Below are positions 49,982-64,000 of a stretch of DNA of 64,000 nucleotides, piece by piece. Under the pieces are notes generated by a model. That model did not search any database. It was given only the letters and a program-made list of their open reading frames with translations, and had not been told where the DNA came from. Position 1 is the first letter of the stretch; every line of letters starts with the position of its first letter. The stretch comes from Ancylobacter sp. Lp-2 (GTDB taxonomy: Bacteria > Pseudomonadota > Alphaproteobacteria > Rhizobiales > Xanthobacteraceae). Both the position numbers and the translations under genes were made by a program. Where the stretch lies: NCBI RefSeq assembly GCF_020523795.1, contig NZ_JAJALI010000005.1:310001-374000 (forward strand), given 5' to 3'.

Positions 49982-51568
49982 TCAGGACCAGAAGGGCCTG
50001 GCCTCGGTAAACAGTTCCCAGGTCTGCTTCAGCTCCTTGGCGGTTTCGACGCAATCCCGTCCCTGCCAGCCGGTGATCGCCCCGATCGCCCGATGGACCT
50101 GCGGGCTCGACGTGCTCGCCTCGACCTCGCGCAGAAGCGATTGCGTCGTGGTGGCATCGTTGTCCGCCCCGAGGACGTTCTGCAGCCGCGACATCCGCTT
50201 CAGATATTTCTGGGCGACCTCGGTCTCGCCGAAAAGCGGCTGGAAGAATTCCGCGGCGTAGCGGAGCTTCTTCAGGGTGAGGCGCAGTTCATGCCGGGCC
50301 TCCGGCGCGAGCCGGCGCAAATGCTGGCCCTGCTTCAGCGCCTTCCGGCTGAGGCGGGTCAGCGCCCGGTCGGCGACGTCTCGACCGGGCTGGGTCAGCA
50401 CCGCCAGCGCCTCGATCCCGATGTCGTTGCGCCAGCTGCGGCGCTCGATCACCCTGCCGAGAGACAGCAGGAAGCCCGTGCAATCGGGACCGAGCAGAAC
50501 CGCGCGCGCCGCCTCGTAGCCGCGCTCCCGCAGCGGTGCGGTCGCGGCCTTGAGGTCGGTAAAATCGATGCCGGGCAGGTTGGTGGCCTCGATCTCGGCG
50601 ATCGTGGTGGACTGGAAGACGTCCCAGTTGCGGGCCGGCCCCAACGCGGAGGCCAGCCTGCGGGCATCGACCACCAGAGCCTGAAGCGTCGAGGCGGGGA
50701 TTTCCCGCCCGAATACCGAGATCGCCGTCCGCAGGCGCCGGAGGGCGACCCGCAGCTGATGTACGCCTTCCAGGTCCCTTCCGTGCTGCGCCGCCATCAG
50801 ATTGGCCATGACGTGCCGCTGACAGGTGGTCAGGGTCTTGGCGATCACCTCGTCGGCGATGTCGTCGGGCTCGATGCCGGAGGCGGGCGCCTTTCCGGCA
50901 CGCGGATGACCGCCGAAAGCGAGCGCGTAGCCGCGCTCCGCCTTGCTCTGGGTGCCGATGCGAAGGGAGCCCTGCTCCAGCAGCGACAAGGCGAGCTCGT
51001 AGAGGGCGCCGACCTCGCCCGACTTCAGCTCCAGCTCGATTTCGCAGACCGGCTCCGTCCGCTCGCCGGCGATCAGTTCGCCCTCGTCGAACGCCAGCTC
51101 GACGACCGAGCCGCCGAAGGGCACCGTCTTGGTGTGGCGGCGGATGCGGGTGGTGAAGACCGTCCCGAGATCGGCCGCCTGCAACGTCTCGAACGGCGCG
51201 CCGAGGTCACCCAGCGGCAGGGCGTCGAGCTGCAGCGCCATATCCGGCACCTGTGTCTCCAGCTCCGGCCGCTGCAAGGGGTTCGCCTGCGCCGCCAGTT
51301 TCAGGGTCTGCACATGCTGCTTGCCGCTGCGCCGAACGCGAAGCGAGCCGCCGTGCCGGGCGATGACCGCATCGGGCGTATCGTAATAGGTGGCCTCCAG
51401 CCGCCGGACGACGCCCCTGGATGTGGCATTGCGCAATACGATCGGGGCATCGACGAGCCGCGCAAGAGTGGCCGGATCCGTCAACAGCTTGAGTTCGATC
51501 TCGTGAGCGCCCGACGCCTTCGCGTCGTCGCCCGCTTCCCGCTGCATCGTGGTGCTGCCTTCCGGCAT
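49982..51568 (-). CDS. CYTH and CHAD domain-containing protein
   Basis: A 528-residue cytoplasmic protein with an N-terminal CYTH domain (residues about 20-210; ELELK-type E-I-E-L-K-L-L start, the triphosphate tunnel motif) and a C-terminal CHAD helical domain (about 240-520; HVMANLMAAQHGRDLEGVHQLRVALRRLR, RHELRLTLKKLRYAAEFFQP). CYTH enzymes act on triphosphates or polyphosphate; CHAD binds polyphosphate. The ATG at 51568 has AAGGA eight bases upstream; a GTG at 51586 behind GGGGAGG is the alternative, with an 6-residue extension. Role in polyphosphate handling is an inference from the domains. Confidence 0.9.
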   Translation of the reverse strand: MPEGSTTMQREAGDDAKASGAHEIELKLLTDPATLARLVDAPIVLRNATSRGVVRRLEATYYDTPDAVIARHGGSLRVRRSGKQHVQTLKLAAQANPLQRPELETQVPDMALQLDALPLGDLGAPFETLQAADLGTVFTTRIRRHTKTVPFGGSVVELAFDEGELIAGERTEPVCEIELELKSGEVGALYELALSLLEQGSLRIGTQSKAERGYALAFGGHPRAGKAPASGIEPDDIADEVIAKTLTTCQRHVMANLMAAQHGRDLEGVHQLRVALRRLRTAISVFGREIPASTLQALVVDARRLASALGPARNWDVFQSTTIAEIEATNLPGIDFTDLKAATAPLRERGYEAARAVLLGPDCTGFLLSLGRVIERRSWRNDIGIEALAVLTQPGRDVADRALTRLSRKALKQGQHLRRLAPEARHELRLTLKKLRYAAEFFQPLFGETEVAQKYLKRMSRLQNVLGADNDATTTQSLLREVEASTSSPQVHRAIGAITGWQGRDCVETAKELKQTWELFTEARPFWS

Positions 51569-51766
51569 GTCGTCGTCCTTCTTCACGCCTGCCTCCCCCG
51601 GCCGTCGGTCGTCGGTCGTCGCCAGAGGGGAAGCCATCGATAGTGCCTGCACACAGCGATAGGGGCTGAGACTGTCACAAAAAAGTAGCAATGGCGCCGA
51701 GACGCACGGAAAGATTGGATATCCGGGCAAACAGCGCGAAGGCGTTCATGCTGGACGTGTCGCCAC

Positions 51767-52948
51767 TCACGGCCCGGCATCGATCTCGGCGATGATCCGG
51801 CCGGCCTCGGCAAAGGCGGTATTGGCGGCCGGGACGCCGGCATAGATCGCGGTCTGCATGAGCACCTCCTTCAGCTCGTCGCGGGTGAAGCCGTCGCGCG
51901 CGAGCCCGGCGCGGACATGCAGGCGAAACTCCTCCCAGCGACCGAGGCCGGCGGTGATCGCCACCACCAGCAGCCGGCGGGTGCGCTCGTCGAGCCCCGG
52001 CCGGCTCCAGATCTCCTGCCAGGCGATGCGAGTGATCATCGCCTGGAACTCAGCGTTGAAGGGGGTGCGCGCCGCCAGCGAGCGGTCGACCCAGTCGTCG
52101 CCGAGCACCCGGCGCCGATGGGCGAGACCCGCCTCGTACAGTGTCTGCGCCGCCTGCTCGACCTCCTGCGCCGGCGCGAGGAAGCTCCGGAGTGCGCTCG
52201 CCAGTGCGGCCGGCACCTCGACGGGGGCGAGATGGGCGCAGTCGAGAACGAGGTGAGCGGCGCCGGGAATGCCGGCGACGAGCCGCTCGCCATGGCCGGC
52301 ATAGGGCGTCGAGACATCGCGCGTGCCGGTGACGACCAGCGTCGGCACGGCGATTTCCCGCAGGTGGCCGATCAGTTCCATGTCGCGGATCGCCGCGCCG
52401 GCACCGGCATAGCCCTGCGCCGGCGTCGACAGCAGGCCACGACGCAGGCTCTCGGCGACGAAGGGGCGCTGCGCGGCAAAGGCCGGCGACAGGAATCGTC
52501 CCATGGCGAGATCGGCGATACCAGCCATGCCCTCCGCCGCCACGCGGGCGATGCGGTCCTCCCACGCGCCCCTGTCCATGGCCGGCGAGGTGCAGATCAG
52601 CGCCAGCGCCGTCACTCGCTCGGGCCGGTCGAGAGCGAGCTGCATCGCCACCATGCCGCCGAGCGACACGCCGGCCACCGCCGCCGCGCCAATTCCGGCG
52701 GCGTCCATCGCGGCGGAGACATCGTCGGCCAGCATCGCCAGCGTGTAGGCGCCAGCCGGGGCATCGGAGGCGCCGTGGCCGCGCATATCGATCCGCAGCA
52801 GGCGGAAGGCCGGCAGCAGATGCGGCATCGCCGCGTCCCACAGCGTCAGGTCGGTGCCGATCGAATTGAGCAGGACAAGCGGCGGGTTGGCCTCGGCTCC
52901 GTCCAGCCTCCAGAAGATGCGCGCCCCGGCGCTGGTGACGAACGGCAT
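51767..52948 (-). CDS. pcaL: 3-oxoadipate enol-lactonase / 4-carboxymuconolactone decarboxylase fusion (PcaD-PcaC)
   Basis: A 393-residue bifunctional enzyme. Residues 1 to about 262 are an alpha/beta hydrolase, PcaD: nucleophile Ser95 in GVSLGG, Asp211 in GTRDVSTP and His239 in DCAHLAPV. Residues from about 268 are a PcaC/CMD domain (RRRVLGDDWVDRSL, FNAEFQAMITRIAWQEIW, AGLGRWEEFRLHVRAGL, MQTAIYAGVPAANTAF). Together they convert 4-carboxymuconolactone to 3-oxoadipate enol-lactone and on to 3-oxoadipate. The D-C fusion order (PcaL) is known from actinomycetes and some proteobacteria. Its start lies four bases after the pcaB stop; it ends the quinate/protocatechuate operon. Confidence 0.95.
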   Translation of the reverse strand: MPFVTSAGARIFWRLDGAEANPPLVLLNSIGTDLTLWDAAMPHLLPAFRLLRIDMRGHGASDAPAGAYTLAMLADDVSAAMDAAGIGAAAVAGVSLGGMVAMQLALDRPERVTALALICTSPAMDRGAWEDRIARVAAEGMAGIADLAMGRFLSPAFAAQRPFVAESLRRGLLSTPAQGYAGAGAAIRDMELIGHLREIAVPTLVVTGTRDVSTPYAGHGERLVAGIPGAAHLVLDCAHLAPVEVPAALASALRSFLAPAQEVEQAAQTLYEAGLAHRRRVLGDDWVDRSLAARTPFNAEFQAMITRIAWQEIWSRPGLDERTRRLLVVAITAGLGRWEEFRLHVRAGLARDGFTRDELKEVLMQTAIYAGVPAANTAFAEAGRIIAEIDAGP

Positions 52949-52952
52949 GGCC

Positions 52953-54098
52953 CTATCCCTCGTGCGGGTCGGAAAGCAGCTGCGCGACCAGCGCCGCGCT
53001 CTCGCCGATATCGCCGCCGAGTTCGGCCGCCGCGAGGTTGCGGGCGATCGCGGCCGTGTCGATCTCCAGCCCCTGCGCCACCTCCGCCATCGCCGCCGCG
53101 CTGCCGGCCGCGAGCAGGAACAGCTCGGCCAGCACCGGCCCTTCCGCCTGCCAGCCGCCGAGGCCGCGCTCGCCCTCTGCCGGCAGGCCAAACAGCACGC
53201 CGGCGGCGAGGCCGGGGGCGCGATGAGCGGCGGCCAGCGCGACCTGGCATCCGGTCGGATTGCGCTTATGCGCCATGGCCGAGGAACCGCCGCGGCCGGC
53301 AACCGCCGGTTCGCGCGCCTCGCCGATGGCGTTCTGCGCCAGCAGCGAGAGGTCGCGCGCCATCTTGCCAAGCGCGCCGATGAGAATGGCGAGGGCGGCC
53401 GCGATGCCGGCGAGCCCACCGCGACGGACGTGCCAGGGCGGCGCGGCGGGCAGGCCGAGCGCCGGACCCAGCCGGGCGGCGACCGCCGCGCCCTTGCCGT
53501 CCAGTCCCTCCCGCGTACCCGCCGCGCCGCCGAACTGCAGCACCGCGTGATCGGCGACTTCGGCCTCCAGCCGGCGGGATGCCTCGCAGATGCCGGCGCG
53601 CCACTGCGCGAGGCGCAGGCCGAAGCCGATCGGCCGCGCATCCTGCAACAGCGTGCGGCCAAGCGCCGGCCGCGTCGCGTGCCGCTGCGCCTCCAGGGCG
53701 AGCGCCGCCGTCAGCGGATCGATGTCCTGCGCGAGCAGGGTCGTGGCCTCGCGGATCTGGAGGGCCAGCACGGTATCGGCGAGGTCCTGGCTGGTGGTGC
53801 CCTTGTGCAGGGCCGGGGCGATGGCGGGCGGCAGCGCCGCACGCAATCGGATGACCAGCGGGATCGCCAGCGTGCCAGCATGGGCGGCCTCGGCGGCGAG
53901 TTCCGCCGGATCGACGACGAGGGTACGGCAAAGCTCGGCGATGGCGAGCGCCGCCTCCGGCGCCACCAGCCCCTCGGCGGCCTCCGCGCTGGCGAGCGCC
54001 GCCTCGAAGGCGAGCGCATGGCGCAGCGTCGTGGCGTCGTCGAAGACCGCCAGCATGGCGTCGGTGGTCGAGGGCCGGGTGCGGAGCAACTGGCTCAT
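52953..54098 (-). CDS. pcaB: 3-carboxy-cis,cis-muconate cycloisomerase
   Basis: A 381-residue fumarase-superfamily lyase, producing 4-carboxymuconolactone from the ring-cleavage product of protocatechuate. The signature loop GSSAMAHKRNP at residues 271-281 (catalytic Ser in Gly-Ser-Ser) and TSQDLADTVLALQ near 102 match PcaB; the N-terminal DAMLAVFDDATTLRHALAFE is typical. It is shorter than many PcaB (about 350-450). Start ATG at 54098 overlaps the pcaG stop by four bases. Confidence 0.94.
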   Translation of the reverse strand: MSQLLRTRPSTTDAMLAVFDDATTLRHALAFEAALASAEAAEGLVAPEAALAIAELCRTLVVDPAELAAEAAHAGTLAIPLVIRLRAALPPAIAPALHKGTTSQDLADTVLALQIREATTLLAQDIDPLTAALALEAQRHATRPALGRTLLQDARPIGFGLRLAQWRAGICEASRRLEAEVADHAVLQFGGAAGTREGLDGKGAAVAARLGPALGLPAAPPWHVRRGGLAGIAAALAILIGALGKMARDLSLLAQNAIGEAREPAVAGRGGSSAMAHKRNPTGCQVALAAAHRAPGLAAGVLFGLPAEGERGLGGWQAEGPVLAELFLLAAGSAAAMAEVAQGLEIDTAAIARNLAAAELGGDIGESAALVAQLLSDPHEG

Positions 54099-54790
54099 AG
54101 GTCGAAGAACACCGTTTCGTTCTCCCCCTGCAGCACGATGTCGAGCCACCAGACGCCATCGGGCCGGCGCCGGGCGATCAGCGTATCCCGCCGCTCCGCC
54201 GGCACTAGCGCGAGGATCGGGTCGTCGCCATTGCCCTCGCCATCGGCGAAATAGAGCCGGGTGGCCAGCCGCTTGAGCAGGCCGCGCCCGAGCACGGACA
54301 GCGCGATGTGCGGCGCCTGCAGGGTATTGCCCGGCCCAGGCACCCGGCCGGGGCGAATGGTGCGGAAGCGCCATATGCCGTTCGCGTCGGTCGCCCCACG
54401 GCCGAAGCCGACGAAATGCGGATCGAGCGGCACCTCCTCGCGCCCGTCCTCGTCGCTGGCATAGCGGCCGGCGGCATTGGCGTGCCAGATCTCGACCATG
54501 ACATCGTTCAACGGCGTACCCTGGCCATCATAGACGCCGCCGGCGATCTCGATCACCTCACCCTGCGGCGCCCCGGAGACGCCGGAAGTGGCGAGCAGGA
54601 AATGCTCCGGCGGCATCAGGTCGGGCCGCGCGCCGAGATCGGAGCGGCCGACGAGGTCGGCGCCGCCCTTCCACGGCAGGCCGTAGTGAAAGAACGGCCC
54701 CACCGTCTGCGACGGCGTCTGCCCAAACAGCGTCGGGTCCTGATTATCGAGGCGCGGCGCGGTATTCAGGGCGTCGAGGTCAGTGGTCAT
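54095..54790 (-). CDS. pcaG: Protocatechuate 3,4-dioxygenase alpha subunit
   Basis: A 231-residue intradiol dioxygenase alpha subunit. It has the family fold (VGPFFHYGLP near residue 30, VMVEIWHANAAGRYAS near 97, GRGATDANGIWRFRTIRPGR near 125) but, as expected for PcaG, lacks the full set of Fe ligands: after the first Tyr the equivalents of the second Tyr and two His are absent or changed. It is about 30 residues longer than typical PcaG (about 200), with an insertion near 45-75. Start ATG at 54790 overlaps the pcaH stop. Associates with PcaH. Confidence 0.92.
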   Translation of the reverse strand: MTTDLDALNTAPRLDNQDPTLFGQTPSQTVGPFFHYGLPWKGGADLVGRSDLGARPDLMPPEHFLLATSGVSGAPQGEVIEIAGGVYDGQGTPLNDVMVEIWHANAAGRYASDEDGREEVPLDPHFVGFGRGATDANGIWRFRTIRPGRVPGPGNTLQAPHIALSVLGRGLLKRLATRLYFADGEGNGDDPILALVPAERRDTLIARRRPDGVWWLDIVLQGENETVFFDL

Positions 54791-55523
54791 CATGCTCCTC
54801 CTCGAACGGGGTCTGGTCGCGGCCTTTGAGCACGATGTCGAAGCGATAGCCGAGCGCCCAATTCGGCACGGTGGTGCCGATGTCGAAGCGGGCGACGAGG
54901 CGCTGGCGATAGGGCATCGGCACGGCATTGGCGATCGGGTCGATCTCGATCAGCGGATCGTCCGGGAAATACATCTGCGTGACCAGCCGGGTGGCGAAGG
55001 CGGGGCCGAGCAGCGAGAGATGGATATGCGCCGGGCGCCACGCATTCTTGTGGTTGCCCCACGGATAGGCGCCGGGCCGGATGCTGACGAAGCGGTAGCG
55101 CCCCTCGGCATCGGTGATCACGCGGCCGACGCCGGTGAAATTCGGGTCGAGCGGCGCCGGCCAGTCGTCGCGGGAATGGATGTAGCGCCCGGCGGCGTTG
55201 GCCTGCCAGATCTCGATCACCGTATCCGGCACCGGGCGCGCCTGCTCGTCGAGTACCAGGCCGGCGACGACGATGCGCTGGCCCTGCGGTTCGCCGCGAT
55301 GCTGCACCGTGAGGTCCGCCATGGTGGGGCCCATCAGCCGCGCCCAGGCATGGTCGGGGCCGGTGACTTCCGTGAGCGTCGCCGGAATGGCGAGCGGCGC
55401 GAGGCGGGGCGCGCGCAGCACGGTGGAACGGTAGTCGGCATGCAGCGAGGGCGGCGCGCCCGCATCCTCGCGGCGATAGGGAAGGATCATTCGGCTGATC
55501 GGTCGGCTGCTCACTTGGCTCAT
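54780..55523 (-). CDS. pcaH: Protocatechuate 3,4-dioxygenase beta subunit
   Basis: A 247-residue catalytic subunit: ortho ring cleavage of protocatechuate with O2 and non-heme Fe(III). The four Fe ligands are present: Tyr114 (NAAGRYIH), Tyr153 (PGAYPW), His166 and His168 (AHIHLS). IEIWQANAAGRY and YPWGNHKNAWRPAHIHLS are the family signatures. ATG at 55523. Overlaps pcaG by 11 bases, so the subunits are coupled. Confidence 0.96.
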   Translation of the reverse strand: MSQVSSRPISRMILPYRREDAGAPPSLHADYRSTVLRAPRLAPLAIPATLTEVTGPDHAWARLMGPTMADLTVQHRGEPQGQRIVVAGLVLDEQARPVPDTVIEIWQANAAGRYIHSRDDWPAPLDPNFTGVGRVITDAEGRYRFVSIRPGAYPWGNHKNAWRPAHIHLSLLGPAFATRLVTQMYFPDDPLIEIDPIANAVPMPYRQRLVARFDIGTTVPNWALGYRFDIVLKGRDQTPFEEEHDDH

Positions 55524-55571
55524 GGCACCACCTCCATCAAGCGGCCACGGGAAGGGACAGGCGTTGCAGGC

Positions 55572-57476
55572 TCACTGGCCGGCGAAGGCCGACGCGGCGG
55601 GCATCTGCAGATTGGCCTGCGCGGTCAGGCGGATGGCGGCATTGGCCGCGCCGTAGCCGGCATAGTTGTCGCGCTGCACGATCTCGAAGAAGAAGCCGCC
55701 ATTCAGCGTCGCGGTGTAGGCGTGGCGAAACTCGCCGCCGGCATCGCGGTCGTAGAGGATGTTCAGCGCCTTAAGCGCGTCGATGTCGGCGGCGGAGAGG
55801 TCGGAGCGCGCCTCGAGGTCGTCATAGTAGTTCTCCGGGATCGGCAGCATGGCGACGCCATCAGTCACCAGCCGGCCGACGGTGGCGGCGATGTCGTGGG
55901 TGACGAAGGCGATGTGCTGCACGCCGGAGCCGAACAGCTCGTTGACGAAGCGGGCGGACAGGGTGCGGTGGCTCTGCGAGCCGTTGAGGATCAGCCGCAG
56001 CCCGTGGCCGGCGCCGTCGACCGGTCCGCTCTCGACGACCTGGCTCTGCACCACCCCGCCGGGATCGATCACCGCCTGGGTCGGCGACTTCCGCGTCTCG
56101 AACAGCGAGGAGTAGAACAACAGCCAGGTCAGCATCTCCTCGTACTGCATGCTCTGCGAGACATGGTCGACGCCGAGCAGCCCGGCGCCCGGAACCACCT
56201 CCCCGGTCGGCTCGAAATCCACCTCGGCCCAGCGGCCGAGCGCCGAGGCGCGGTCGAGGAAATAGACGAGGCTACCGCCGACGCCGCGCACCGCGGGAAT
56301 GTCGAGCTCGCCGGGACCGACCGCGCCGGCATGCGGCACGTCGAGCAGCGCCCGTGCGCGTTCGATCGCCTCCCGGGCGTCCGGCACCCGTAGTGCCAGC
56401 GCGCAGACCGAGGTGCCATGGGTGATCTGGTAGCTGTGCGCGAAGCCTTCCGCGTCGCTGTTCAGCACGAGGCGGATGTCGCCCTGGCTCCAAAGGTCGA
56501 CATCCTTCGAGCGGTGCCGGCCGGTGCGGCCGAAGCCGAAGGCGCGCAGCAGCTTTTCGAGGCCGGGCCGCTCCGCCTCGGCGACGGCGAACTCGATGAA
56601 CTCCACCGCCTCGACCGGACGCGGCACCGGCATCGGCACCGCGCCGGGCACCGACCGCCCGAGCCGGCGGGCGGTCTCGTCCAGCACCCAGATCAGCGAC
56701 CGGTGGCCGTCCAGCGCCACCGAGCGCGCCGAGCCGGCCCGGAAGCGGTCGTTGAAGATCTCCAGCGACAGCACGCCGTCATAGCCGGTCGCGACCAGTG
56801 CATCCATGAAGCCGGCGAGGTCGAGGTCGCCCTGGCCCGGCAGGCAGCGCCAGTGCCGGCTCCAGGACAGCGGGTCGAGCTGCAGCAGCGGCGCATCGGC
56901 CATCTGCACCATGGCGATCTTGTCGCGCGGGATGGTGGCGATAGCGGAAAGGTCGAGCTTGCGGGCGAGGATGTGGAAGCTGTCGAGCACGACGCCGACT
57001 TCCGGCCGTCCGGCCCGCCGCACGATCTCCCAGGCATCGCGATAATCGTAGATGTGGCGGCCCCAGGCCAGCGCCTCATAGCCGACGCGCAGGCCGCGCC
57101 GACCGGCCCGCTCGCCGAGCTCGACGAAGTCGGCCGCCAGCCGGTCGATGCCGCTCTGCGCCTCCGGCGAGACGTTGGAGCAGACGAACAGCAGTCCGCT
57201 GCCGAGCTCCTGCAACAGATCGAACTTGCGCTCGGCACGGTCGAAGGTGCGCTGCCGGCGTGCCTCCGGCATGCCCTCGAAGTCGCGGAAGGGCTGGCAG
57301 GTGACAATGGACAGGCCGAGGTCGCCGCAGATCCGGCGCACCTCGGCCGGCGAGCCGGGGAAGGCGATCAGGTCGTTCTCGAAGATCTCGACCGCCGGGA
57401 AGCCCGCCGCCGCGATGGCCTCCAGCTTCTCCACCAGCGTACCCGAGACGCAGACGGTGGCAATGGACGGGATCAT
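55572..57476 (-). CDS. quiC: 3-dehydroshikimate dehydratase, QuiC type with HPPD-like domain
   Basis: A 634-residue protein that dehydrates 3-dehydroshikimate to protocatechuate, linking quinate/shikimate to the pca branch. The N-terminal TIM barrel (to about 275) has metal ligands Glu134 (GYEALAWG), Asp165 (VVLDSFHI), Gln191 (VQMADAP) and Glu239 (LSLEIFN), the same positions I recall for the Pseudomonas QuiC. From about 290 comes a VOC/HPPD-like domain with its own metal triad: His in GVDHVSQS, His in GVQHIAFVTHDI and Glu in FFEIVQRDNYAG. ATG at 57476. It sits between the AroE-like and pcaH genes, as pathway order predicts. Confidence 0.94.
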   Translation of the reverse strand: MIPSIATVCVSGTLVEKLEAIAAAGFPAVEIFENDLIAFPGSPAEVRRICGDLGLSIVTCQPFRDFEGMPEARRQRTFDRAERKFDLLQELGSGLLFVCSNVSPEAQSGIDRLAADFVELGERAGRRGLRVGYEALAWGRHIYDYRDAWEIVRRAGRPEVGVVLDSFHILARKLDLSAIATIPRDKIAMVQMADAPLLQLDPLSWSRHWRCLPGQGDLDLAGFMDALVATGYDGVLSLEIFNDRFRAGSARSVALDGHRSLIWVLDETARRLGRSVPGAVPMPVPRPVEAVEFIEFAVAEAERPGLEKLLRAFGFGRTGRHRSKDVDLWSQGDIRLVLNSDAEGFAHSYQITHGTSVCALALRVPDAREAIERARALLDVPHAGAVGPGELDIPAVRGVGGSLVYFLDRASALGRWAEVDFEPTGEVVPGAGLLGVDHVSQSMQYEEMLTWLLFYSSLFETRKSPTQAVIDPGGVVQSQVVESGPVDGAGHGLRLILNGSQSHRTLSARFVNELFGSGVQHIAFVTHDIAATVGRLVTDGVAMLPIPENYYDDLEARSDLSAADIDALKALNILYDRDAGGEFRHAYTATLNGGFFFEIVQRDNYAGYGAANAAIRLTAQANLQMPAASAFAGQ

Positions 57477-57488
57477 GGCGTGCTCCTT

Positions 57489-58319
57489 TCAGCGAAGCCG
57501 CGCAATGGCGCGCAGGTCGTCCGGCGTGGTGGAGGGCAGTCCGAAGAATTCGAGATAGGCGGGGATCTGCTCGAACAGCATGTCGGTGCCGATCTGAAAC
57601 GCGCAGCCGCGTGTCCGCGCCGCCGCGAGGAACGGCGTGATCTCGTGCGTCAGCACCACCTCGCCGACGAAGGCGGAGGGAGAAAGCCTGTCGACGTCGA
57701 CCGGCAGAGGATCACCGGGCCGCATGCCGAGCGGGGTGGCGTTGACCACGATGTCGAAGCCGGACGGGTCGTTCGAGCCGGTCGCGACCCGCAGGTCGGG
57801 ATAGTGACGCATCAGCCGCCTACCGAGCTCGTCGGCCGCCGCCGCGTGGCTGTCGAACAAGGCGAGCTCGGCGATGCCGGCGCGGGCGAGCGAGGCGGCG
57901 ATGGCCGAGCCGACGCCGCCGGCGCCGACGACCAGCCCGCGCCGGCCGGCCACCTCGCGCCCCTTGCGCAACAGGCCGCGCACGAAGCCCTCGCCGTCGA
58001 ACATCTCGCCGACCAGCCGGCCGTCCGCCTCCCGCCGCACCGCGTTGCAGGCGCCGGCGATGGCGGCCGTCGGGCGCACCTCGTCGACGATGGCGAGGGT
58101 CGCGACCTTGTGCGGCATGGTGATCAGCGTGCCGAGCGCGTTGGAGAGCCGGAAGAACAGCTTGAGAAAGGCCGGGTAGTCGGCGCTGCGGCACCCCATC
58201 GGCACGACGAGCGCATCGATGCCCTCGCGCTCGAAATAGGGGTTGTAGATCATCGGCGACTTGAAGCTCTCGGTGGGAAAGCCGAGATGGCCGATCAGCT
58301 GTGTGGTTCCGGTGATCAT
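57489..58319 (-). CDS. AroE-family shikimate/quinate dehydrogenase
   Basis: A 276-residue NAD(P)-dependent dehydrogenase. Catalytic Lys71 in LITMPHK and Asp108 in EMFDGEG, the nucleotide loop VVGAGGVGSAIAASLARAG near 130, and NATPLGM near 190 match AroE. The substrate-carboxylate motif S-x-S-P reads F-K-S-P (residues 19-22), so the first Ser is Phe, and N-T-D reads M-F-D. This suggests altered substrate preference, for example quinate or 3-dehydroshikimate-related acids, rather than biosynthetic shikimate. Context (between a QuiC and a MocA-type dehydrogenase) supports a catabolic role: quinate or shikimate oxidation. Confidence 0.9.
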   Translation of the reverse strand: MITGTTQLIGHLGFPTESFKSPMIYNPYFEREGIDALVVPMGCRSADYPAFLKLFFRLSNALGTLITMPHKVATLAIVDEVRPTAAIAGACNAVRREADGRLVGEMFDGEGFVRGLLRKGREVAGRRGLVVGAGGVGSAIAASLARAGIAELALFDSHAAAADELGRRLMRHYPDLRVATGSNDPSGFDIVVNATPLGMRPGDPLPVDVDRLSPSAFVGEVVLTHEITPFLAAARTRGCAFQIGTDMLFEQIPAYLEFFGLPSTTPDDLRAIARLR

Positions 58320-58337
58320 CTCTCGTCCCGATTGCTG

Positions 58338-59375
58338 TCAGGCGGCCAGCGCGATCGCGCCGCCCTGCCGTGCCGCCCGCCCGATGGCGTCCACCACCCT
58401 GAGCGTCGCCAGCCCCTCGCGGCCGGAAACCAATGGCGCCTCGCTGCCGCGTATGACGGCGGCGAAATGCCGGATCTGCCGCCGCAGCGGGTCCTCGGGC
58501 GCGACGGCGAGGCGCTCGCGCGCGAGCGGCTCCCACCAACTGCGCGGCCCCGGATAGCGCCAGACATCCAGCTGCGGCACGCTGAGAGCGCCCTGCGTGC
58601 CAGCGATCTGGCAGCAGGCCTCGTCCTCGCGCGGATAGGCCGGGTTCTCGCCGCTGGTGGTCTCCCAGCTCCACGGCGCGACCGTCGTGTCGGAGACGCT
58701 CAGCGTGCCCAGAGCACCGCTGGCGAAGCGCAGCAGCACCGTCGCGGTGTCCTCCACCGCATGGCCGCGCACCGCGCTGGAGGTCTGCGCCTGCACGTCG
58801 ACGATCTCGCCGCCGAGATGACGGAACAGGTCGACATCGTGGATGAGGTTGATCAGCACCGGGCCGGCACCCGGCTGGCGCCGCCACGCCACGTCGAAAT
58901 AGTCGTCCGGCTTCATCATCCAGGCATGGCCGGACAGCAGCACCAGCCGGCCGAGACGACCGGCGTCGATCACCTCCCGCGCCTTGCGGATCAGCGGGTT
59001 GTGGCGCCGGTGATGCCCGACCAGCAGCGGCACGCGTGCGGCCTCCGCCGCCTCGACCAGCAGCTGCGCCCCGGCGAGGCTGTCGGCGATCGGCTTCTCG
59101 ACCAGCACCGGAATGCCGGCGGCGACCAGTTCCAGTGCGTGCTCGACATGCAGCTGGTTCGGCGTGGCGACGACCACCCCGTCCGGCCGCTCCGCCGCCG
59201 GCACCGCCGCGAAGCGCGGATACAGGGGCACGCCGGCCCGCGCCGCGACCTCGCGGGCCGCCGGCGCCGGATCGATGACGGCCGACAGCTGCACGTGAGG
59301 CTCGGCACGGACATGCGCGATGTGGCGCTGCCCGATCAGTCCGGCCCCCATCACGGCGATGCGCAACGGCTGCAT
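58338..59375 (-). CDS. Gfo/Idh/MocA family oxidoreductase
   Basis: A 345-residue NAD(P)-dependent dehydrogenase. N-terminal Rossmann domain: RIAVMGAGLIGQRHIAHVRAE at the start, EKPIADSLAGAQLLVEAA near 93 (the Glu-Lys-Pro motif with catalytic Lys). The C-terminal domain (about 125-345) has GHHRRHNPLIRKAREVIDAG and an HDVDLFRHLGGEIV helix with a conserved Asp/His. These enzymes oxidise polyols, cyclitols and sugar acids. In the cluster it could oxidise a quinate-like or cyclitol substrate feeding 3-dehydroquinate/3-dehydroshikimate; the actual substrate is unknown. ATG at 59375; 18 bases before the AroE-like gene. Confidence 0.9.
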   Translation of the reverse strand: MQPLRIAVMGAGLIGQRHIAHVRAEPHVQLSAVIDPAPAAREVAARAGVPLYPRFAAVPAAERPDGVVVATPNQLHVEHALELVAAGIPVLVEKPIADSLAGAQLLVEAAEAARVPLLVGHHRRHNPLIRKAREVIDAGRLGRLVLLSGHAWMMKPDDYFDVAWRRQPGAGPVLINLIHDVDLFRHLGGEIVDVQAQTSSAVRGHAVEDTATVLLRFASGALGTLSVSDTTVAPWSWETTSGENPAYPREDEACCQIAGTQGALSVPQLDVWRYPGPRSWWEPLARERLAVAPEDPLRRQIRHFAAVIRGSEAPLVSGREGLATLRVVDAIGRAARQGGAIALAA

Positions 59376-59396
59376 GGCTCTCTCCCTTCCGCCGCT

Positions 59397-60173
<777 letters not shown>

Positions 60174-60198
60174 GGCCGGGTCTCCCGCTATGCCGCGC

Positions 60199-61032
60199 TC
60201 AGCTGGCCGAGAAGGGGATGCCTTCGAGGCTGTCGGGGAACTGGTGCACCGGCACCTTCATCCACTTGTCGTAGATCTTCTTCAGCTCGCCATTGGCCTT
60301 GATCTTGTCGATGAAGGCGTTGAGCGAGGCGTTGATTTCCTTCTCGCCCAGGCGGGTGCAGGCGCCGTTGTAGAGCTTCTGGAATTCGAGCTTGTTCTCG
60401 AACTCGCCGGGGCGGGCCTGCTCGACGCGCTGCAGGTAGAAGATGTTGCCGCCGACCGCCTGCACCTGGCCGGAGGCCAGCGCCTGGATGCTCGGTGCGT
60501 CGCCGTCATAGCGTCGGATGGTAGTGCCGGCCGGGGCGTTCTTGGTCACCTGGGTATCCTGCGCGGCGCCCTTGGCGACGCCGATCGAGACCTTGGCCAT
60601 GTCGGCATTGGTCTTGATCTCCACCGATTTGGGGGCGATCAGCACGATGGCGTTGGCGACATAGGGCTTGCTGAACTGCACCGCCTTGGCGCGCTCGGGC
60701 AGCATCGCCATGGTGGCGAACAGCACGTCGACGCGGCCCGAGGTCAGCGCCGGGATGCGGTTGCTGACCTCGAGCGGCACGAACTCCACCTCGACGCCGA
60801 GCTCCTTGGCGTAGAGCCGGGACATGTCGGCATCGATGCCGTCCTGCTTGCCGTCGCTGGTGACGAAGCCCCAGGGCGGGTTGTCGCCCTGGATGCCGAC
60901 GATGATCTTGCCCCGCGCCTTGATCTCCTCGGGGGTGACGGCGGAGGCGGGACGGGTGGCGAGCGCCGGCAGGGCCAGCGCCGCGACGGCGGCGGCCAGC
61001 ACCAGGCGGCGGGTCGGCGTAAAGCGGGTCAT
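60199..61032 (-). CDS. ABC transporter solute-binding protein, family 3
   Basis: A 277-residue periplasmic SBP_bac_3 (polar amino acid/opine type) protein. Signal peptide [18 protein letters not shown] with cleavage near ATRPASA-V; the mature part begins [22 protein letters not shown], the conserved family 3 start, and contains [23 protein letters not shown] and [23 protein letters not shown]. Start ATG at 61032 follows GGGAG. The SBP_bac_3 family also includes binders of cyclohexadienyl/aromatic-precursor acids, consistent with a quinate/shikimate-like ligand, but ligand is not read from sequence. Confidence 0.93.
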
Positions 61033-61083
61033 GTTTCTCTCCCTTTGCATTGGCGTTTTTCGTTTCTTGCTTGGACGACACCG

Positions 61084-61725
61084 TCACCGCGAGGCGACGG
61101 CGAAGCGGCGCTCCAGATGCGAGCCGTAGAGCGACAGCGGCCAGCACATCAGGAAGTAGAGGATGCCGACGATCCCGAAGACGAGGAGCGGCTGGAAGAT
61201 CTGGTTCGAGACGATGTTCCCGGCCCGCGCCAGCTCGGTGAAGCCGACGATGGAGGCGAGCGAGGTGCCCTTGATCAGCTGCACGAGGAAGCCGACGGTC
61301 GCCGGTAGCGAGATGCGGATCGCCTGCGGCAGCACCACGTCCTTCATCCGCGAGACGTATTTCAGGTTCAGCGCGCTGGCGGCCTCGGTCTGGCCGCGCG
61401 GTACCGCCTCGATGGAGCCGCGCCAGATCTCGCCGAGATAGGCGCTGGCGTGCAGGGTGAAGCCGATCGACACCGCCACCCACGCGCTGAGCCGCAGGCC
61501 GACCAGCGCCAGCCCGTAATAGACGACGAACAGTTGCATCAGCAGCGGCGTGCCCTGGAACAGCGCGATGTAGCCCGCCGCCAGCCGCTCCAGCGGTCGC
61601 ATGCCGGAGGTGCGCATCAGCGCGATGGCGAGCCCGCCGATCGCGCCGCACACGAAGCCGATCGCCGATAGCGCGACCGTCCATTTCAGGCCGGTGAGGA
61701 GGAACAGGAACTCGCCGAGACCCAT
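61084..61725 (-). CDS. ABC transporter permease, HisMQ family (second)
   Basis: A 213-residue inner-membrane permease of the polar-amino-acid type with about five helices (FLFLLTGLKWTVALSAIGFVCG, LERLAAGYIALFQGTPLLMQLF). The EAA-loop region reads EAASALNLKYVSRMKDVVLPQAIRISLPATVGFL near 130-162 with the family E-A-A---G-like block. It starts seven bases after the stop of the other permease. ATG at 61725. Subunit of the same importer. Confidence 0.92.
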   Translation of the reverse strand: MGLGEFLFLLTGLKWTVALSAIGFVCGAIGGLAIALMRTSGMRPLERLAAGYIALFQGTPLLMQLFVVYYGLALVGLRLSAWVAVSIGFTLHASAYLGEIWRGSIEAVPRGQTEAASALNLKYVSRMKDVVLPQAIRISLPATVGFLVQLIKGTSLASIVGFTELARAGNIVSNQIFQPLLVFGIVGILYFLMCWPLSLYGSHLERRFAVASR

Positions 61726-61732
61726 GATGCCC

Positions 61733-62401
61733 TCACTTCACCGGATAGCTGAAATAGCGGGTCGAGATGGTCGAGAAGAACGTCATCATCAGCCAGGACA
61801 GGCCGAGATAGAGCAGTGTGATGACGCCGAAGACCTCGAAGCTGCGGAAGCTCTCGGATTCGATGCGCTGCGCCACCGAGGTCAGCTCATAGGCGGAGAT
61901 CGCCGAGGCCACGCTGGTGGTCAGGGTGAGCAGGATGAACTGGCTGGTCAGCGAGGGGAAAACCGCCCGCAGCGCCGGCTTCAGCACGATGAGCCGGAAC
62001 ACCAGCCCCTTGTGCAGCCCCAGCGCCAGCCCGGCCTCGACCTGGCCACGACTGATCGATTGCACGCCGCCGCGGATGATTTCGATGGCGTAGGCGCCGC
62101 CATTGATGCCGAGGGCGAGGATGGCGGTCGGCGTCGGGTCGAGGCGCAGGCCGGCCAGCGGCAGCGCGAAATAGATGAAGTAGATCTGCACCAGGAAGGG
62201 CGTGTTGCGGATCAGCTCGACGAAGCTCTTCACCGCCCAGCGGATCGCCTTGTAGCGGGAATCGCGCAGCACCACCCCGCCAATGCCGATGACGATGGCG
62301 ATCGCCATCCCGCCCAGCGCGAGCAGCAGGGTGCCGAGGCAGCCGGCAAGCAGGTCCGGCAACCCGTCGAGGACGGGCGTGAAATCCAGCGCATAGTTCA
62401 T
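61733..62401 (-). CDS. ABC transporter permease, HisMQ family (first)
   Basis: A 222-residue permease. About five hydrophobic segments, EAA-loop near 130-165 (QVEAGLALGLHKGLVFRLIVLKPALRAVFP), and SVASAISAYELTSVAQRIESESFRSFEVF near the C-terminal third, typical of HisM/GlnP-type permeases. First gene of the operon; its ATG at 62401 is about 120 bases downstream of the double operator in the minus direction. The minus-strand candidate promoter is TTGACC (62546-62541), a 15-base spacer, and TACAAT (62525-62520). Confidence 0.92.
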   Translation of the reverse strand: MNYALDFTPVLDGLPDLLAGCLGTLLLALGGMAIAIVIGIGGVVLRDSRYKAIRWAVKSFVELIRNTPFLVQIYFIYFALPLAGLRLDPTPTAILALGINGGAYAIEIIRGGVQSISRGQVEAGLALGLHKGLVFRLIVLKPALRAVFPSLTSQFILLTLTTSVASAISAYELTSVAQRIESESFRSFEVFGVITLLYLGLSWLMMTFFSTISTRYFSYPVK

Positions 62402-62519
62402 GGCGTTTCCTCGACAGCCGACCTTCTGCGGGTCGGTCCGCTTCATCGTCCCGGCGCCTCTGCGGGCGGCTCGGCAGGCACGGACGCGCGGCTTGCGCGA
62501 TGCTTTTGGCGAATGATAA

Positions 62520-62546
62520 ATTGTACCAGATGGTTCATTTGGTCAA
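62520..62546 (-). promoter_or_regulatory. Candidate sigma-70-type promoter of the quinate/pca operon
   Basis: Minus strand: TTGACC (62546-62541, one base off the consensus -35) then a 15-base spacer and TACAAT (62525-62520, one base off TATAAT). The spacer is slightly short. It is overlaid exactly by operator site 1 (62522-62537), so TetR binding there would block polymerase. About 120 bases from the first permease ATG. Confidence 0.5.
62522..62537. promoter_or_regulatory. Predicted TetR operator, site 1
   Basis: 16-bp dyad TGTACC-AGAT-GGTTCA, half-sites TGnACC and GGTnCA matching on 5 of 6 bases. It lies in the divergent region between the ABC-transporter operon and the TetR gene. Site 2 has the same half-site pattern; centres are 31 bp apart, about three helical turns, so dimers would sit on the same face. 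Confidence 0.6.
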
Positions 62547-62552
62547 GCGGAA

Positions 62553-62568
62553 TGGACCGGATGGTACA
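62553..62568. promoter_or_regulatory. Predicted TetR operator, site 2
   Basis: 16-bp dyad TGGACC-GGAT-GGTACA. Half-sites TGnACC-N4-GGTnCA as in site 1. It is 51 bases upstream of the TetR ATG at 62619, a position suited to autorepression. Confidence 0.6.
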
Positions 62569-62618
62569 TTCCGCATCATGCCGCTCCCGCGCTCGCGCGC
62601 GCCCTCTTCGGTGCCTCG

Positions 62619-63281
62619 ATGGAAAAGACAGTCACGCCACCCCGCACCGACAGAAAGACCCAGTCGTGGACCCAGGACCCCGAAGGCGTCCGGCGCAGCA
62701 TCCTCGACGCCGCACGCATCGAGTTCGTCGAGCATGGGCTGAGCGGCGCGCGCGTCGACGAAATCGCCGCCAAGACCGCAACCAGCAAGCGGATGATCTA
62801 CTATTACTTCGGCGACAAGGAGGGGCTCTACCGCGCCGTCATCGAGGAGATGTACGACCGTATCCGCCGCTTCGAGCGCGGCCTCGATCTCGGCGCCTTG
62901 CCGCCGGATGAGGCAATGGCGAAGCTGGCTGGCTTCACCTTCGACTACCACGCCGACAATCCCGATTTCGTGCGCATGGTGATGATCGAGAACATCCACC
63001 ATGCCCGCCATCTCGCCACCTCGACCAAGATCGCCACGCTCAACCTGTCGATCATCGACGTGATCCGGGAGATCTATAAACGGGGCGTCGCCGAGGGCCT
63101 GTTCCGGCCGGGCATCGAGGCGCTGGACATCCACCTGACCATCAGCGCGCTCAGCTTCTACAACGTGTCGAACCGCGCCAGCATCCGGCAGGTGTTCGGC
63201 CACGACATGGGTGCGCCGGACATCCTGCCGCAACGCCGGCAGACGGCAATCGACACGGTAATGCGGATGCTACGGGCCTGA
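62619..63281 (+). CDS. TetR/AcrR family transcriptional regulator
   Basis: A 220-residue repressor. N-terminal TetR HTH at about residues 25-70: SILDAARIEFVEHGLSGARV, then EIAAKTATSKRMIYYYFGDKEGLYRAVI (recognition helix with Tyr-Tyr-Tyr-Phe). The C-terminal ligand domain (about 95-220) has FDYHADNPDFVRMVMIENIHHARHL and a late LTISALSFYNVSNR stretch. It is divergent from the quinate/protocatechuate operon with two operator-like dyads between, so it most likely represses that operon and itself; the inducer would be a pathway compound such as quinate, shikimate or protocatechuate. ATG at 62619. Convergent with aroQ. Confidence 0.92.
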   Translation: MEKTVTPPRTDRKTQSWTQDPEGVRRSILDAARIEFVEHGLSGARVDEIAAKTATSKRMIYYYFGDKEGLYRAVIEEMYDRIRRFERGLDLGALPPDEAMAKLAGFTFDYHADNPDFVRMVMIENIHHARHLATSTKIATLNLSIIDVIREIYKRGVAEGLFRPGIEALDIHLTISALSFYNVSNRASIRQVFGHDMGAPDILPQRRQTAIDTVMRMLRA

Positions 63282-63309
63282 CCGTGTCGCTTACCGGCGG
63301 ATAGGAGGC

Positions 63310-63753
63310 TCAGGCCTTACCCGCCAGGGCCGCCATCGCCTCGATCGCCAGTTCGTAGCCGGCGGCGCCGAAACCGATCATCACACCGGTGACGACCGGC
63401 GAGATCAGCGATTTATGATAGATGCTCTCGCGCGCATGGACGTTGGAGATGTGCAGCTCGATCTTCGGCCCGTCGAACATCTTCAGCGCGTCCATCAGCG
63501 CCACCGAGGTGAAGGTGTAGCCGGCGGGATTGATGACGATGCCGCAGGCCTCGCCGCGCGCCTGCTGCACGCTCTCGACCAGTTCGCCCTCGAAATTGGT
63601 CTGCCGGAACTCGACCCCGAAACCCAGCGCCCCGGCCTTCGCGGCGCAGCGTTCCGCGATCTCCGCCAGCGTCGTGGAGCCGTAGATCGCCGGTTCGCGC
63701 TGGCCGAGCAGGTTGAGATTCGGCCCGTTCAACACATGGATGCGCCGTCCCAT
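63310..63753 (-). CDS. aroQ: 3-dehydroquinate dehydratase, type II
   Basis: A 147-residue dodecameric-type dehydroquinase that converts 3-dehydroquinate to 3-dehydroshikimate. Motifs: GPNLNLLGQREPAIYG near residue 8 (catalytic Arg and Tyr), GIVINPAGYTFTSVALMDAL near 69 (the usual His of Y-T-H-T-S is Phe) and ELHISNVHARE near 98 (catalytic His). In the quinate cluster it supplies the missing step between dehydroquinate and QuiC, so a catabolic role is likely, though it could also serve aromatic synthesis. ATG at 63753. The TetR gene ends 28 bases from its stop, convergent. Confidence 0.95.
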   Translation of the reverse strand: MGRRIHVLNGPNLNLLGQREPAIYGSTTLAEIAERCAAKAGALGFGVEFRQTNFEGELVESVQQARGEACGIVINPAGYTFTSVALMDALKMFDGPKIELHISNVHARESIYHKSLISPVVTGVMIGFGAAGYELAIEAMAALAGKA

Positions 63754-63791: not shown

Positions 63792-64000
63792 TTACATCGC
63801 GACGGCGATATCCTGTCCGACCCCGAAACACATGGTGGCGAGGCGCCTCCCCAGTGAGGACCGGTTCCAATGCCGCCGCGCCGGTGATGCCGGTGCAGGA
63901 CATGCCAGGCGGATGGGCGCACATGATCACTCGGCCGAGGATACGGGCGAACGGTTCGAGGCCATGCTGCCCGGCGACCGCCCGTAGGAGACACCCGCCT
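63792..64000 (-). pseudogene. Broken thiolase (acetyl-CoA acyltransferase) remnant, runs off the edge
   Basis: Minus-strand pieces match a thiolase. Upstream in one frame is a RAVAGQHGLEPFARIL-like stretch followed at once by C-A-H-P-P-G-M-S-C-T-G-I-T-G-A-A-A-L-E, where an intact thiolase has G-H-P-x-G-x-S-G at the active-site loop. Then in a shifted frame comes L-A-T-M-C-F-G-V-G-Q-D-I-A-V-A-M-stop (63837-63792), the conserved C-terminus with its catalytic Cys. The distance between the two domains is too short by about 100 residues, so a deletion and at least one frameshift have occurred. A 3-oxoadipyl-CoA thiolase (PcaF) would fit the cluster, but type is not decidable. The rest lies beyond base 64000. 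Confidence 0.7.

What the first reader, a model, noticed from the sequence alone, without database searches (positions are those of the whole stretch)
51767..63753. Compact quinate/shikimate-to-3-oxoadipate operon with its own importer and regulator
Eleven minus-strand genes from 62401 to 51767 have gaps of 7-51 bases or overlaps, so they look like one transcript: two HisMQ permeases, SBP_bac_3 protein, ATPase, MocA-type dehydrogenase, AroE-type dehydrogenase, QuiC, PcaH, PcaG, PcaB, PcaD-PcaC. Add AroQ and a divergent TetR and the set covers uptake, 3-dehydroquinate, 3-dehydroshikimate, protocatechuate and 3-oxoadipate. Linking a polar-amino-acid-type ABC importer (rather than an MFS or TRAP carrier) to this pathway under a TetR repressor is, as far as I know, unusual.
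Basis: partly seen in the sequence, partly recalled or inferred. Interest (0 to 1): 0.75.

Follow-up and report, generated by a model that had tools for sequence, protein, structure and literature searches.

The report
Quinate-type acid import and breakdown operon
An eleven-gene bacterial operon appears to import a quinate- or shikimate-like plant acid with an ABC pump that resembles amino-acid pumps and to break it down towards central metabolism; the same pump and enzyme set recurs in many soil and root bacteria, and a linked dehydratase has an altered binding pocket that leaves the exact substrate open.

Summary
In detail: an Ancylobacter genome carries a tight 11-gene minus-strand operon (ABC importer, MocA and AroE dehydrogenases, QuiC, PcaHGB, PcaDC) divergent from a TetR gene. 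It is not unique: of 80 loci fetched by the binding protein, 74 keep the whole ABC importer and 62 also have AroQ, AroE and QuiC. The searched papers, as listed, describe no such importer; the quinate importer I found in print is a TRAP system. New here: (1) the binding protein keeps the carboxylate arginine but has Asn in 86 of 86 rows where 16 of 28 sister proteins have Asp. (2) Two operator boxes, TGNAC-N6-GTNCA, 31 bp apart, flank the promoter element; at least one recurs upstream of 15 of 16 TetR orthologues. (3) The flanking AroQ is convergent with TetR, without such a box, and belongs to a clade in which both residues that hold the substrate's C5 hydroxyl (His81, Arg112) are replaced while catalytic residues stay; ten of 80 loci carry an ordinary AroQ as well. 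The AroE-like enzyme also has changed pocket residues. Import and catabolism of a quinate/shikimate-type acid is well supported; the exact substrate is not settled.

The parts
61733..62401 (-). ABC permease 1 (HisM/HEQRo type); longer ORF starts at 62446
   Evidence: BPD_transp_1 and TIGR01726; an orthologue begins MNYTLDFTP
61084..61725 (-). ABC permease 2 (HisM/HEQRo type)
60199..61032 (-). SBP_bac_3 solute-binding protein; longer ORF starts at 61050 (residue numbers in this report count from there)
   Evidence: PF00497; Asn202 in 86 of 86 rows; model pLDDT 89.6 with the family-3 SBP fold
59397..60173 (-). ABC ATPase, GlnQ-like
   Evidence: NF007027 309 bits, below its cut-off of 379
58338..59375 (-). 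Gfo/Idh/MocA-family dehydrogenase, perhaps a second cyclitol dehydrogenase
   Evidence: PF01408, PF22725, PF02894; found in 47 of 80 loci at 40% identity or more
57489..58319 (-). AroE-family dehydrogenase; Asp156 where the genome's two other AroE proteins have Asn-Arg; altered substrate pocket
   Evidence: PF08501; best solved relative 4k28; invariant positions; ortholog group with a sharp edge
55572..57476 (-). QuiC, two-domain 3-dehydroshikimate dehydratase
   Evidence: NF042435 687 bits, below its cut-off of 1200; 5hmq 622 bits; nine of the ten active-site residues listed in PMC7442255 kept, residue 97 is Phe instead of Leu
54780..55523 (-). PcaH, protocatechuate 3,4-dioxygenase beta
   Evidence: TIGR02422 over cut-off
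54095..54790 (-). PcaG, protocatechuate 3,4-dioxygenase alpha
   Evidence: TIGR02423 over cut-off
52953..54098 (-). PcaB, 3-carboxymuconate cycloisomerase
   Evidence: TIGR02426 320 vs cut-off 356; NF006554 332 vs 595
51767..52948 (-). PcaDC fusion, enol-lactonase plus carboxymuconolactone decarboxylase
   Evidence: NF051488 over cut-off
62522..62537 (.). operator-like box TGNAC-N6-GTNCA on the permease side, next to a conserved CTTGAC element
   Evidence: exact match; this box present in 14 of 14 other TetR loci examined; CTTGAC in 16 of 16 aligned rows
62553..62568 (.). second operator-like box on the TetR side, 31 bp from the first
   Evidence: exact match; strict in 9 of 14 other loci, 31 bp away each time
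62619..63281 (+). TetR-family regulator (TetR_C_29), divergent from the operon
   Evidence: PF17938 154 bits
63310..63753 (-). AroQ-like protein of the Phe81/Tyr112 clade; convergent with TetR, not in the operon transcript
   Evidence: TIGR01088; residues; clade

Best explanation
The locus is an inducible module that imports a quinate/shikimate-type cyclohexane carboxylic acid and breaks it down. The SBP_bac_3 protein binds the acid through the family's carboxylate arginine but without the aspartate that usually holds an amino group, and the ABC complex imports it (inferred). The AroE-like enzyme, probably NAD-dependent, perhaps with the MocA-type enzyme, oxidises it to a 3-dehydro acid (inferred). 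AroQ dehydrates the quinate-type intermediate, QuiC converts 3-dehydroshikimate to protocatechuate, and PcaHG, PcaB and PcaDC carry it to 3-oxoadipate, which pcaF and presumably pcaIJ elsewhere in the genome finish (inferred from families). TetR represses the operon by sitting on two boxes 31 bp apart around the promoter element and is released by the substrate or an intermediate (inferred). AroQ has its own promoter facing a PcaR/PcaU-type regulator. Shown by sequence: gene content, order, conservation, boxes and pocket substitutions. Not shown: every ligand, every reaction, repression and induction.
For: Gene content and spacing. Of 80 loci fetched by the SBP: permeases 77 and 77, ATPase 74, AroQ at 60% identity or more 77, AroE 68, QuiC 63, MocA 47, all four pca genes 17; ABC plus AroQ plus AroE plus QuiC in 62 (some misses are contig ends). 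Matched neighbour control 74 of 80 against 0 of 29. In 249 genomes of the order 5 have the SBP and 63 have QuiC (each at E 1e-100), and all 5 are among the 63. SBP Asn202 in 86 of 86 rows, Arg120 in 86 of 86; same-genome paralogues have Asp in 16 of 28 and Asn in 1. Boxes: footprint; at least one strict box upstream of 15 of 16 TetR orthologues at 68% identity or more (miss: L042) and of 3 of 12 more distant TetR rows, all three beside AroE orthologues without this ABC, against 0.019 sites per kb in all held loci. A TetR_C_29 gene also lies near the S. meliloti TRAP genes taken here to be SMb20034-36, whose binding protein binds D-quinate with Kd 5.9 nM (PMC3454389, passages). QuiC keeps nine of ten active-site residues.
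Against: No growth, binding or expression data. AroQ and the AroE-like enzyme have changed pocket residues, so plain quinate or shikimate may not be the substrate. Twelve of 28 paralogues also lack Asp at the aligned SBP position, so Asn alone does not prove a non-amino-acid ligand. G135 and G211 (SBP 63-66% identical) have the ABC with no QuiC beside it. Five loci with the full ABC and AroQ (L057, L063, L066, L068, L083) have neither AroE nor QuiC within the fetched flank. Nine of 12 distant TetR rows have no box. The fold search of the SBP model returned amino-acid and opine binders and no ligand clue.
Confidence: 0.7

Rival explanations
1. The AroQ-like protein next to the operon does not act on 3-dehydroquinate itself but on an analogue changed at C5 (deoxy, epimeric, O-acylated as in chlorogenic acid, or amino), so the module serves a cyclitol acid other than quinate.
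For: PMC6011038 (passages) assigns the C5 hydroxyl to His81 and Arg112. In rows at 60% identity or more these are Phe and Tyr in 87 of 87, while N12, R19, Y24, N75, D88, H101, S103 and R108 stay in 87 of 87 (rows include a few duplicates and the window itself). The Phe81 proteins form one clade, 88 of 127 distinct rows, support 99/96. Eleven of 80 loci hold an ordinary His81/Arg112 AroQ, nine of them in Bosea-type operons between ATPase and MocA; ten of the eleven also hold the variant, which argues for two functions. The AroE-like enzyme has Phe and Leu where the genome's ordinary AroE (L004) has the first Ser of SxS and the Asn of NVTVPHK.
Against: Two Phe81/His112 AroQs of unnamed same-family genomes (L211, L214) sit by TRAP systems whose binding proteins are 45-47% identical to the protein taken to be SMb20036, a demonstrated quinate binder. 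Tyr or His at 112 could still hold the C5 hydroxyl. QuiC looks ordinary, so the pathway must reach 3-dehydroshikimate or something close. R. phaseoli locus L221 pairs a related ABC (SBP 46%) with an ordinary AroQ.
Confidence: 0.28
2. Plain quinate/shikimate pathway: AroQ and the AroE-like enzyme are ordinary enzymes retuned for catabolic flux, and the substitutions do not change the substrate.
For: In 17 loci with the AroE ortholog but without this ABC, 8 have QuiC at 43-77% identity in the fetched region, and 2 more have 33-34% hits that could be other HPPD-like proteins. TetR_C_29 genes also lie near the S. meliloti quinate TRAP genes.
Against: Two residues that touch the same hydroxyl change together in a whole clade, and ten of 80 loci keep an ordinary AroQ as well. 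No PQQ membrane quinate dehydrogenase over cut-off in the genome (best 119 vs 833 bits), so quinate oxidation would fall to the AroE-like or MocA enzyme.
Confidence: 0.5
3. The ABC importer is an ordinary amino-acid importer that happens to lie upstream of the catabolic genes.
For: Family assignment and fold are those of amino-acid binders.
Against: Linkage in Rhizobium, Bosea, Ancylobacter, Azorhizobium, Agrobacterium and others in different gene orders, matched control 0 of 29, Asn in place of Asp.
Confidence: 0.05
4. AroQ is a separate gene with a housekeeping role, not part of the module.
For: It is convergent with TetR, the box is upstream of it in 0 of 14 loci, and it faces a PcaR/PcaU-type regulator.
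Against: The genome has two other type II genes, one of which fits the family model better; in Rhizobium loci the same clade sits between SBP and permease; 77 of 80 loci hold it.
Confidence: 0.08

Closest known systems
S. meliloti SMb20034-SMb20037 quinate TRAP locus (PMC3454389, passages read)
   Same: Quinate uptake genes beside an AroE-family dehydrogenase, with a TetR_C_29 gene about 2 kb away
   Different: TRAP instead of ABC importer; its AroE is 34% identical to the window's; no QuiC, AroQ or pca hits in the 24 kb read. The plasmid record has no annotation: I take the TRAP binding-protein gene followed by AroE in L217 to be SMb20036-37
Corynebacterium glutamicum qsuABCD (PMC7442255, passages)
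   Same: Quinate/shikimate operon with a two-domain QuiC/QsuB-type dehydratase
   Different: Importer QsuA is an MFS carrier and the regulator a LysR type (both recalled, from no call)
Rhizobium plasmid clusters L007 and L008
   Same: SBP about 86% identical, permeases, ATPase, AroQ of the same clade, AroE, QuiC divergent, pca genes nearby
   Different: Two GntR/FCD regulators and, in L008, PcaQ instead of TetR; pca genes in a separate unit; transporter annotated as for amino acids
P. putida QuiC1 (5hmq)
   Same: Two-domain dehydroshikimate dehydratase, full-length match
   Different: Leu97 is Phe here; its genomic setting was not examined
Shikimate-dehydrogenase family protein 4k28 (recalled as RifI2 of P. 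putida)
   Same: Closest solved relative of the AroE-like enzyme, 168 bits
   Different: 4k28 has Val where the window has Phe19; its natural substrate is recalled as unknown

Membership tests
Quinate/shikimate catabolic operon | 3-dehydroshikimate dehydratase gene | tested here: met
   QuiC, (below the equivalog cut-off, full-length match)
Quinate/shikimate catabolic operon | quinate or shikimate dehydrogenase | tested here: inconclusive
   AroE family met, but pocket residues changed; activity unknown
Quinate/shikimate catabolic operon | growth on or induction by quinate or shikimate | not testable with these tools
   needs culture
Protocatechuate branch of the beta-ketoadipate pathway | pcaGH, pcaB, pcaC, pcaD together | tested here: met
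   (PcaB below its cut-off, but pcaB models are its best hits)
Polar amino acid (PAAT) type ABC importer | SBP_bac_3 + two HEQRo permeases + GlnQ-like ATPase | tested here: met
Polar amino acid (PAAT) type ABC importer | amino-acid ligand, judged by the amino-binding Asp of the SBP | tested here: inconclusive
   Asn202 in 86 of 86 rows, but 12 of 28 paralogues in the genome also lack Asp in this alignment; ligand not measured
Type II 3-dehydroquinate dehydratase | catalytic Arg19, Tyr24, Asp88, His101, Asn75 | tested here: met
   87 of 87 rows
Type II 3-dehydroquinate dehydratase | C5-hydroxyl contacts His81 and Arg112 | tested here: not met
   Phe81/Tyr112 in 87 of 87 rows; contacts named in PMC6011038. 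Hence called AroQ-like here, not filed as a proven dehydroquinase
TetR-type repressor with divergent operator | conserved palindrome by the promoter between the divergent genes | tested here: met
TetR-type repressor with divergent operator | repression relieved by ligand | not testable with these tools
   needs gel shift and reporter

The most novel reading that the evidence does not exclude
A clade of type II dehydroquinase-like enzymes (Phe81 with Tyr or His at 112), tied to dedicated ABC, TRAP and possibly TTT importers, dehydrates a C5-modified 3-dehydroquinate analogue and, with the altered AroE-like and MocA dehydrogenases, opens a route for an unrecognised plant cyclitol acid into protocatechuate.
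Probability: 0.27. Interest if true: 0.75.

Novelty: new variant of a known kind. Interest (0 to 1): 0.5.

Why it matters
Public records annotate these pumps as amino-acid transporters and this AroQ as 3-dehydroquinate dehydratase, in rhizobia and other root bacteria where quinate-type plant acids are a likely carbon source (inference). The linkage gives a testable ligand class for a widespread orphan binding protein, a regulator with a defined operator candidate, and an enzyme clade whose altered pocket predicts a substrate difference.

Tried and rejected
Amino-acid importer by chance: rejected on the matched neighbour control and recurrence in different gene orders. The first form of the control (75 of 80 against 0 of 29) used unlike coverage thresholds for the two sets, so I repeated it on stretches of matched size (74 of 80 against 0 of 29). 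The six misses there (L012, L016, L025, L050, L052, L053) include L012, the nearest relative of the window, whose AroQ and AroE lie outside so short a stretch.

AroQ as part of the operon transcript: rejected on strand and on the TetR gene lying between. AroQ under the TetR box: the box is upstream of AroQ in 0 of 14 loci, and the window scan (up to one mismatch) shows none upstream of AroQ as far as base 64000.

Periplasmic PQQ quinate dehydrogenase feeding a dehydro acid to the ABC: no protein over the TIGR03074 cut-off in the genome.

Other regulon members: eight strict TGNACC-N4-GGTNCA sites in the genome, two of them the operators. I looked only at C22:555235 (L123), by ABC-ATPase and SDR-like ORFs with no obvious link; the other five were not followed. 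The window scan with one mismatch gives 4 hits against 1.1 expected.

First structure model of the SBP was poor (pLDDT 60) and was not used. The second (pLDDT 89.6) gave only family-level matches; absence of a cyclitol-acid binder among the rows shown means nothing.

Consensus promoter/terminator scans gave no more than chance. Only 3 of 25 genomes of the genus carry the SBP at E 1e-70, so it is patchy; transfer was not tested with trees. Gene calls were unreliable at this G+C; homology and a codon-score caller were used instead. QuiC hits of 33-34% in L191 and L203 may be HPPD-like proteins and are not counted as QuiC.


Full report
What is there. The window lies in a genome of 34 contigs and 5.59 Mb. 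Its genus is Ancylobacter by inference: genome G004, given as same genus, has its SBP at the contig position of the A. sonchi locus L012. L012 has the same thirteen genes in the same order at 92-99% identity. Eleven minus-strand genes from 62401 to 51767 lie 4-51 bases apart or overlap: two HEQRo-type permeases, an SBP_bac_3 protein, a GlnQ-like ATPase, a Gfo/Idh/MocA dehydrogenase, an AroE-family dehydrogenase, QuiC, PcaH, PcaG, PcaB and a PcaDC fusion. A TetR gene is divergent. The AroQ gene beyond it is convergent with TetR and so is not in the transcript; its own upstream neighbour, just past the window, is a PcaR/PcaU-family regulator (331 bits, cut-off 285). One pcaF over its cut-off lies on contig C11.

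Is the linkage real? A scan of one genome per species with an SBP alignment gave 221 relatives, of which the best 80 were kept. In these 80, on homology thresholds, permease 1 occurs in 77, permease 2 in 77, the ATPase in 74, AroQ at 60% identity or more in 77, AroE in 68, QuiC in 63, MocA in 47, TetR in 15, all four pca genes in 17; 62 have ABC, AroQ, AroE and QuiC together. Some misses are contig ends. Others are real: L057, L063, L066, L068 and L083 (Ochrobactrum, Brucella, Shinella, an unnamed Rhizobiales) have the full ABC and AroQ but no AroE or QuiC in the fetched flank, and L027, L052 and L071 have little else. Two layouts dominate. Ancylobacter, Bosea, Azorhizobium and a Methylobacterium bin have AroQ, TetR, then permeases-SBP-ATPase, usually followed by MocA, AroE and QuiC. 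Rhizobium and allies have QuiC divergent from SBP-AroQ-permeases-ATPase-(MocA)-AroE; two GntR/FCD regulators were seen in L007 and are annotated in L008. Control on stretches of matched size: 74 of 80 SBP loci have AroQ, AroE or QuiC beside the SBP, against 0 of 29 loci of other SBP_bac_3 genes in the same genome. In 249 genomes of the order, 5 have the SBP and 63 have QuiC at E 1e-100; all 5 are among the 63, with both genes in one cluster in three (G000, G047, G210) and on different contigs in two (G135, G211). In the genus it is patchy, 3 of 25 genomes.

The importer. The family is that of polar amino-acid importers, but the position that is Asp in 16 of 28 same-genome paralogues, and in two of the three solved chains aligned (the third is gapped there), is Asn in 86 of 86 orthologue rows (the window's own copy included), and stays Asn in two relatives of 45-47% identity. 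That this Asp holds the ligand's amino group is recalled. Twelve of 28 paralogues have neither Asp there, one of them Asn, so the test is suggestive only. The carboxylate-binding Arg120 (role recalled) is kept in 86 of 86. A model of good confidence (pLDDT 89.6) has the family-3 fold (Z up to 29.8) and says no more about the ligand.

The regulator. Between TetR and permease 1 lie two boxes, at 62522 and 62553, 31 bp apart, with a CTTGAC element between them that is conserved in 16 of 16 aligned rows. In 14 other TetR loci the permease-side box TGNAC-N6-GTNCA is present in 14 and the TetR-side box in 9, always 31 bp away; none of the 14 has it within 200 bases upstream of AroQ. Counting the window, 15 of 16 TetR orthologues at 68% or more have at least one strict box, the miss being L042. 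Of 12 more distant TetR rows 3 have one (L191, L193, L195), all beside AroE orthologues in genomes of family label f86 (Burkholderiales by my inference) without this ABC, and 9 have none; background is 0.019 per kb. TetR_C_29 genes also lie near the S. meliloti TRAP genes and an S. medicae TRAP-AroQ locus, both without the box. Blocking of the promoter by TetR is the simplest reading but is inferred.

The enzymes. QuiC aligns full length with P. putida QuiC1 (5hmq); of the ten active-site residues listed in PMC7442255 (passages) nine are kept and residue 97 is Phe. The AroE-like protein belongs to an ortholog group with a sharp edge: 20 of 398 phylum genomes at 60% or more, next best 41%. In the 17 of these without this ABC, 8 have QuiC at 43-77% in the fetched region, and 2 more have weak hits; this ties the group to dehydroshikimate. 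Yet compared with the genome's ordinary AroE (L004) it has Phe19 for the first Ser of SxS, Leu65 for the Asn of NVTVPHK and Leu for the Tyr of VYVP, while Thr67, Lys71, Asn92, Asp108 and Gln251 stay; Asp156 stands where L004 and L005 have Asn-Arg, which fits NAD (rule recalled). Its best solved relative is 4k28, which I recall as RifI2, an NAD enzyme weak on shikimate and almost inactive on quinate; only the title of that paper was seen, in a reference list.

The AroQ surprise. PMC6011038 (passages) states that in type II dehydroquinase the C5 hydroxyl is held by His81 and Arg112, the C4 hydroxyl by Asp88 of the neighbour subunit, and that Arg19, Tyr24 and Asp88 are essential. The window AroQ numbers the same, judging by the ranges matched to 1h05 (5-143 on 5-143). 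All catalytic residues are kept, but residue 81 is Phe and 112 is Tyr in 87 of 87 rows at 60% identity or more, against His/Arg in 41 of 49 rows below that (a few rows are duplicates). In a tree of 127 distinct AroQ rows the Phe81 proteins (84 Phe/Tyr, 4 Phe/His) form one clade with support 99/96 (few columns, long branches elsewhere). Eleven of 80 loci have an ordinary AroQ, nine of them Bosea-type operons with it between ATPase and MocA; ten of the eleven hold the variant too (L042 does not). The clade also sits by TRAP systems: L216 by family models, S. medicae by annotation, L211-L214 by similarity of the binding proteins, and once by a tripartite tricarboxylate-type binding protein. This predicts a substrate that differs at C5, or a retuned pocket. 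Against a new substrate: Phe81/His112 members in two unnamed same-family genomes (L211, L214) neighbour TRAP binding proteins 45-47% identical to the protein taken to be SMb20036, reported to bind D-quinate at 5.9 nM (PMC3454389), and Tyr or His could still hold the hydroxyl. R. phaseoli locus L221 has the same kind of ABC (SBP 46%) with an ordinary AroQ and QuiC, so the importer type alone does not demand the variant.

Literature. Ten searches of the held library were made; several lists were capped (40 of 64 papers, 15 of 656, 15 of 279, 8 of 277). I saw listings for all, passages of PMC3454389, PMC6011038, PMC7144000 and PMC7442255, and the abstract and outline of the first. None of the rows listed described, by title and abstract start, a PAAT-type ABC importer for quinate or shikimate or this AroQ clade. 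Subscription journals are mostly missing, so this is a limited statement.

Verdict. The importer's recurrence, the operator candidate and the AroQ clade are the useful new points.

Noticed in passing
window 49982-51730 (-): CYTH-CHAD protein gene downstream of the operon on the same strand; probably not part of it.
   Followed up: partly
L129:745-1512 (just past window 64000): PcaR/PcaU-family IclR regulator divergent from AroQ; a 72% relative lies about 3 kb from AroQ in A. sonchi L012.
   Followed up: partly
L129:1576-6075: M20-type deacylase and HpaB-like monooxygenase ORFs next to the locus, below their cut-offs.
   Followed up: no
L211, L212, L213, L214, L216, L219: Phe81-clade AroQ genes next to TRAP transporter genes in unnamed same-order genomes and S. 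medicae.
   Followed up: partly
L208:5870-12955: TetR, distant SBP (46%), Phe81 AroQ, MocA, a QuiC-like single-domain TIM barrel, an aldo-keto reductase and ABC genes without AroE: a possible variant pathway.
   Followed up: partly
L220:7989-9483: Phe81/Tyr112 AroQ beside a tripartite tricarboxylate-type binding protein in Roseomonas.
   Followed up: no
G000:C27:490224-490631 (L003): A third, very divergent type II AroQ in the genome with Tyr at 81, Asp where Arg19 is expected and a very long branch.
   Followed up: no
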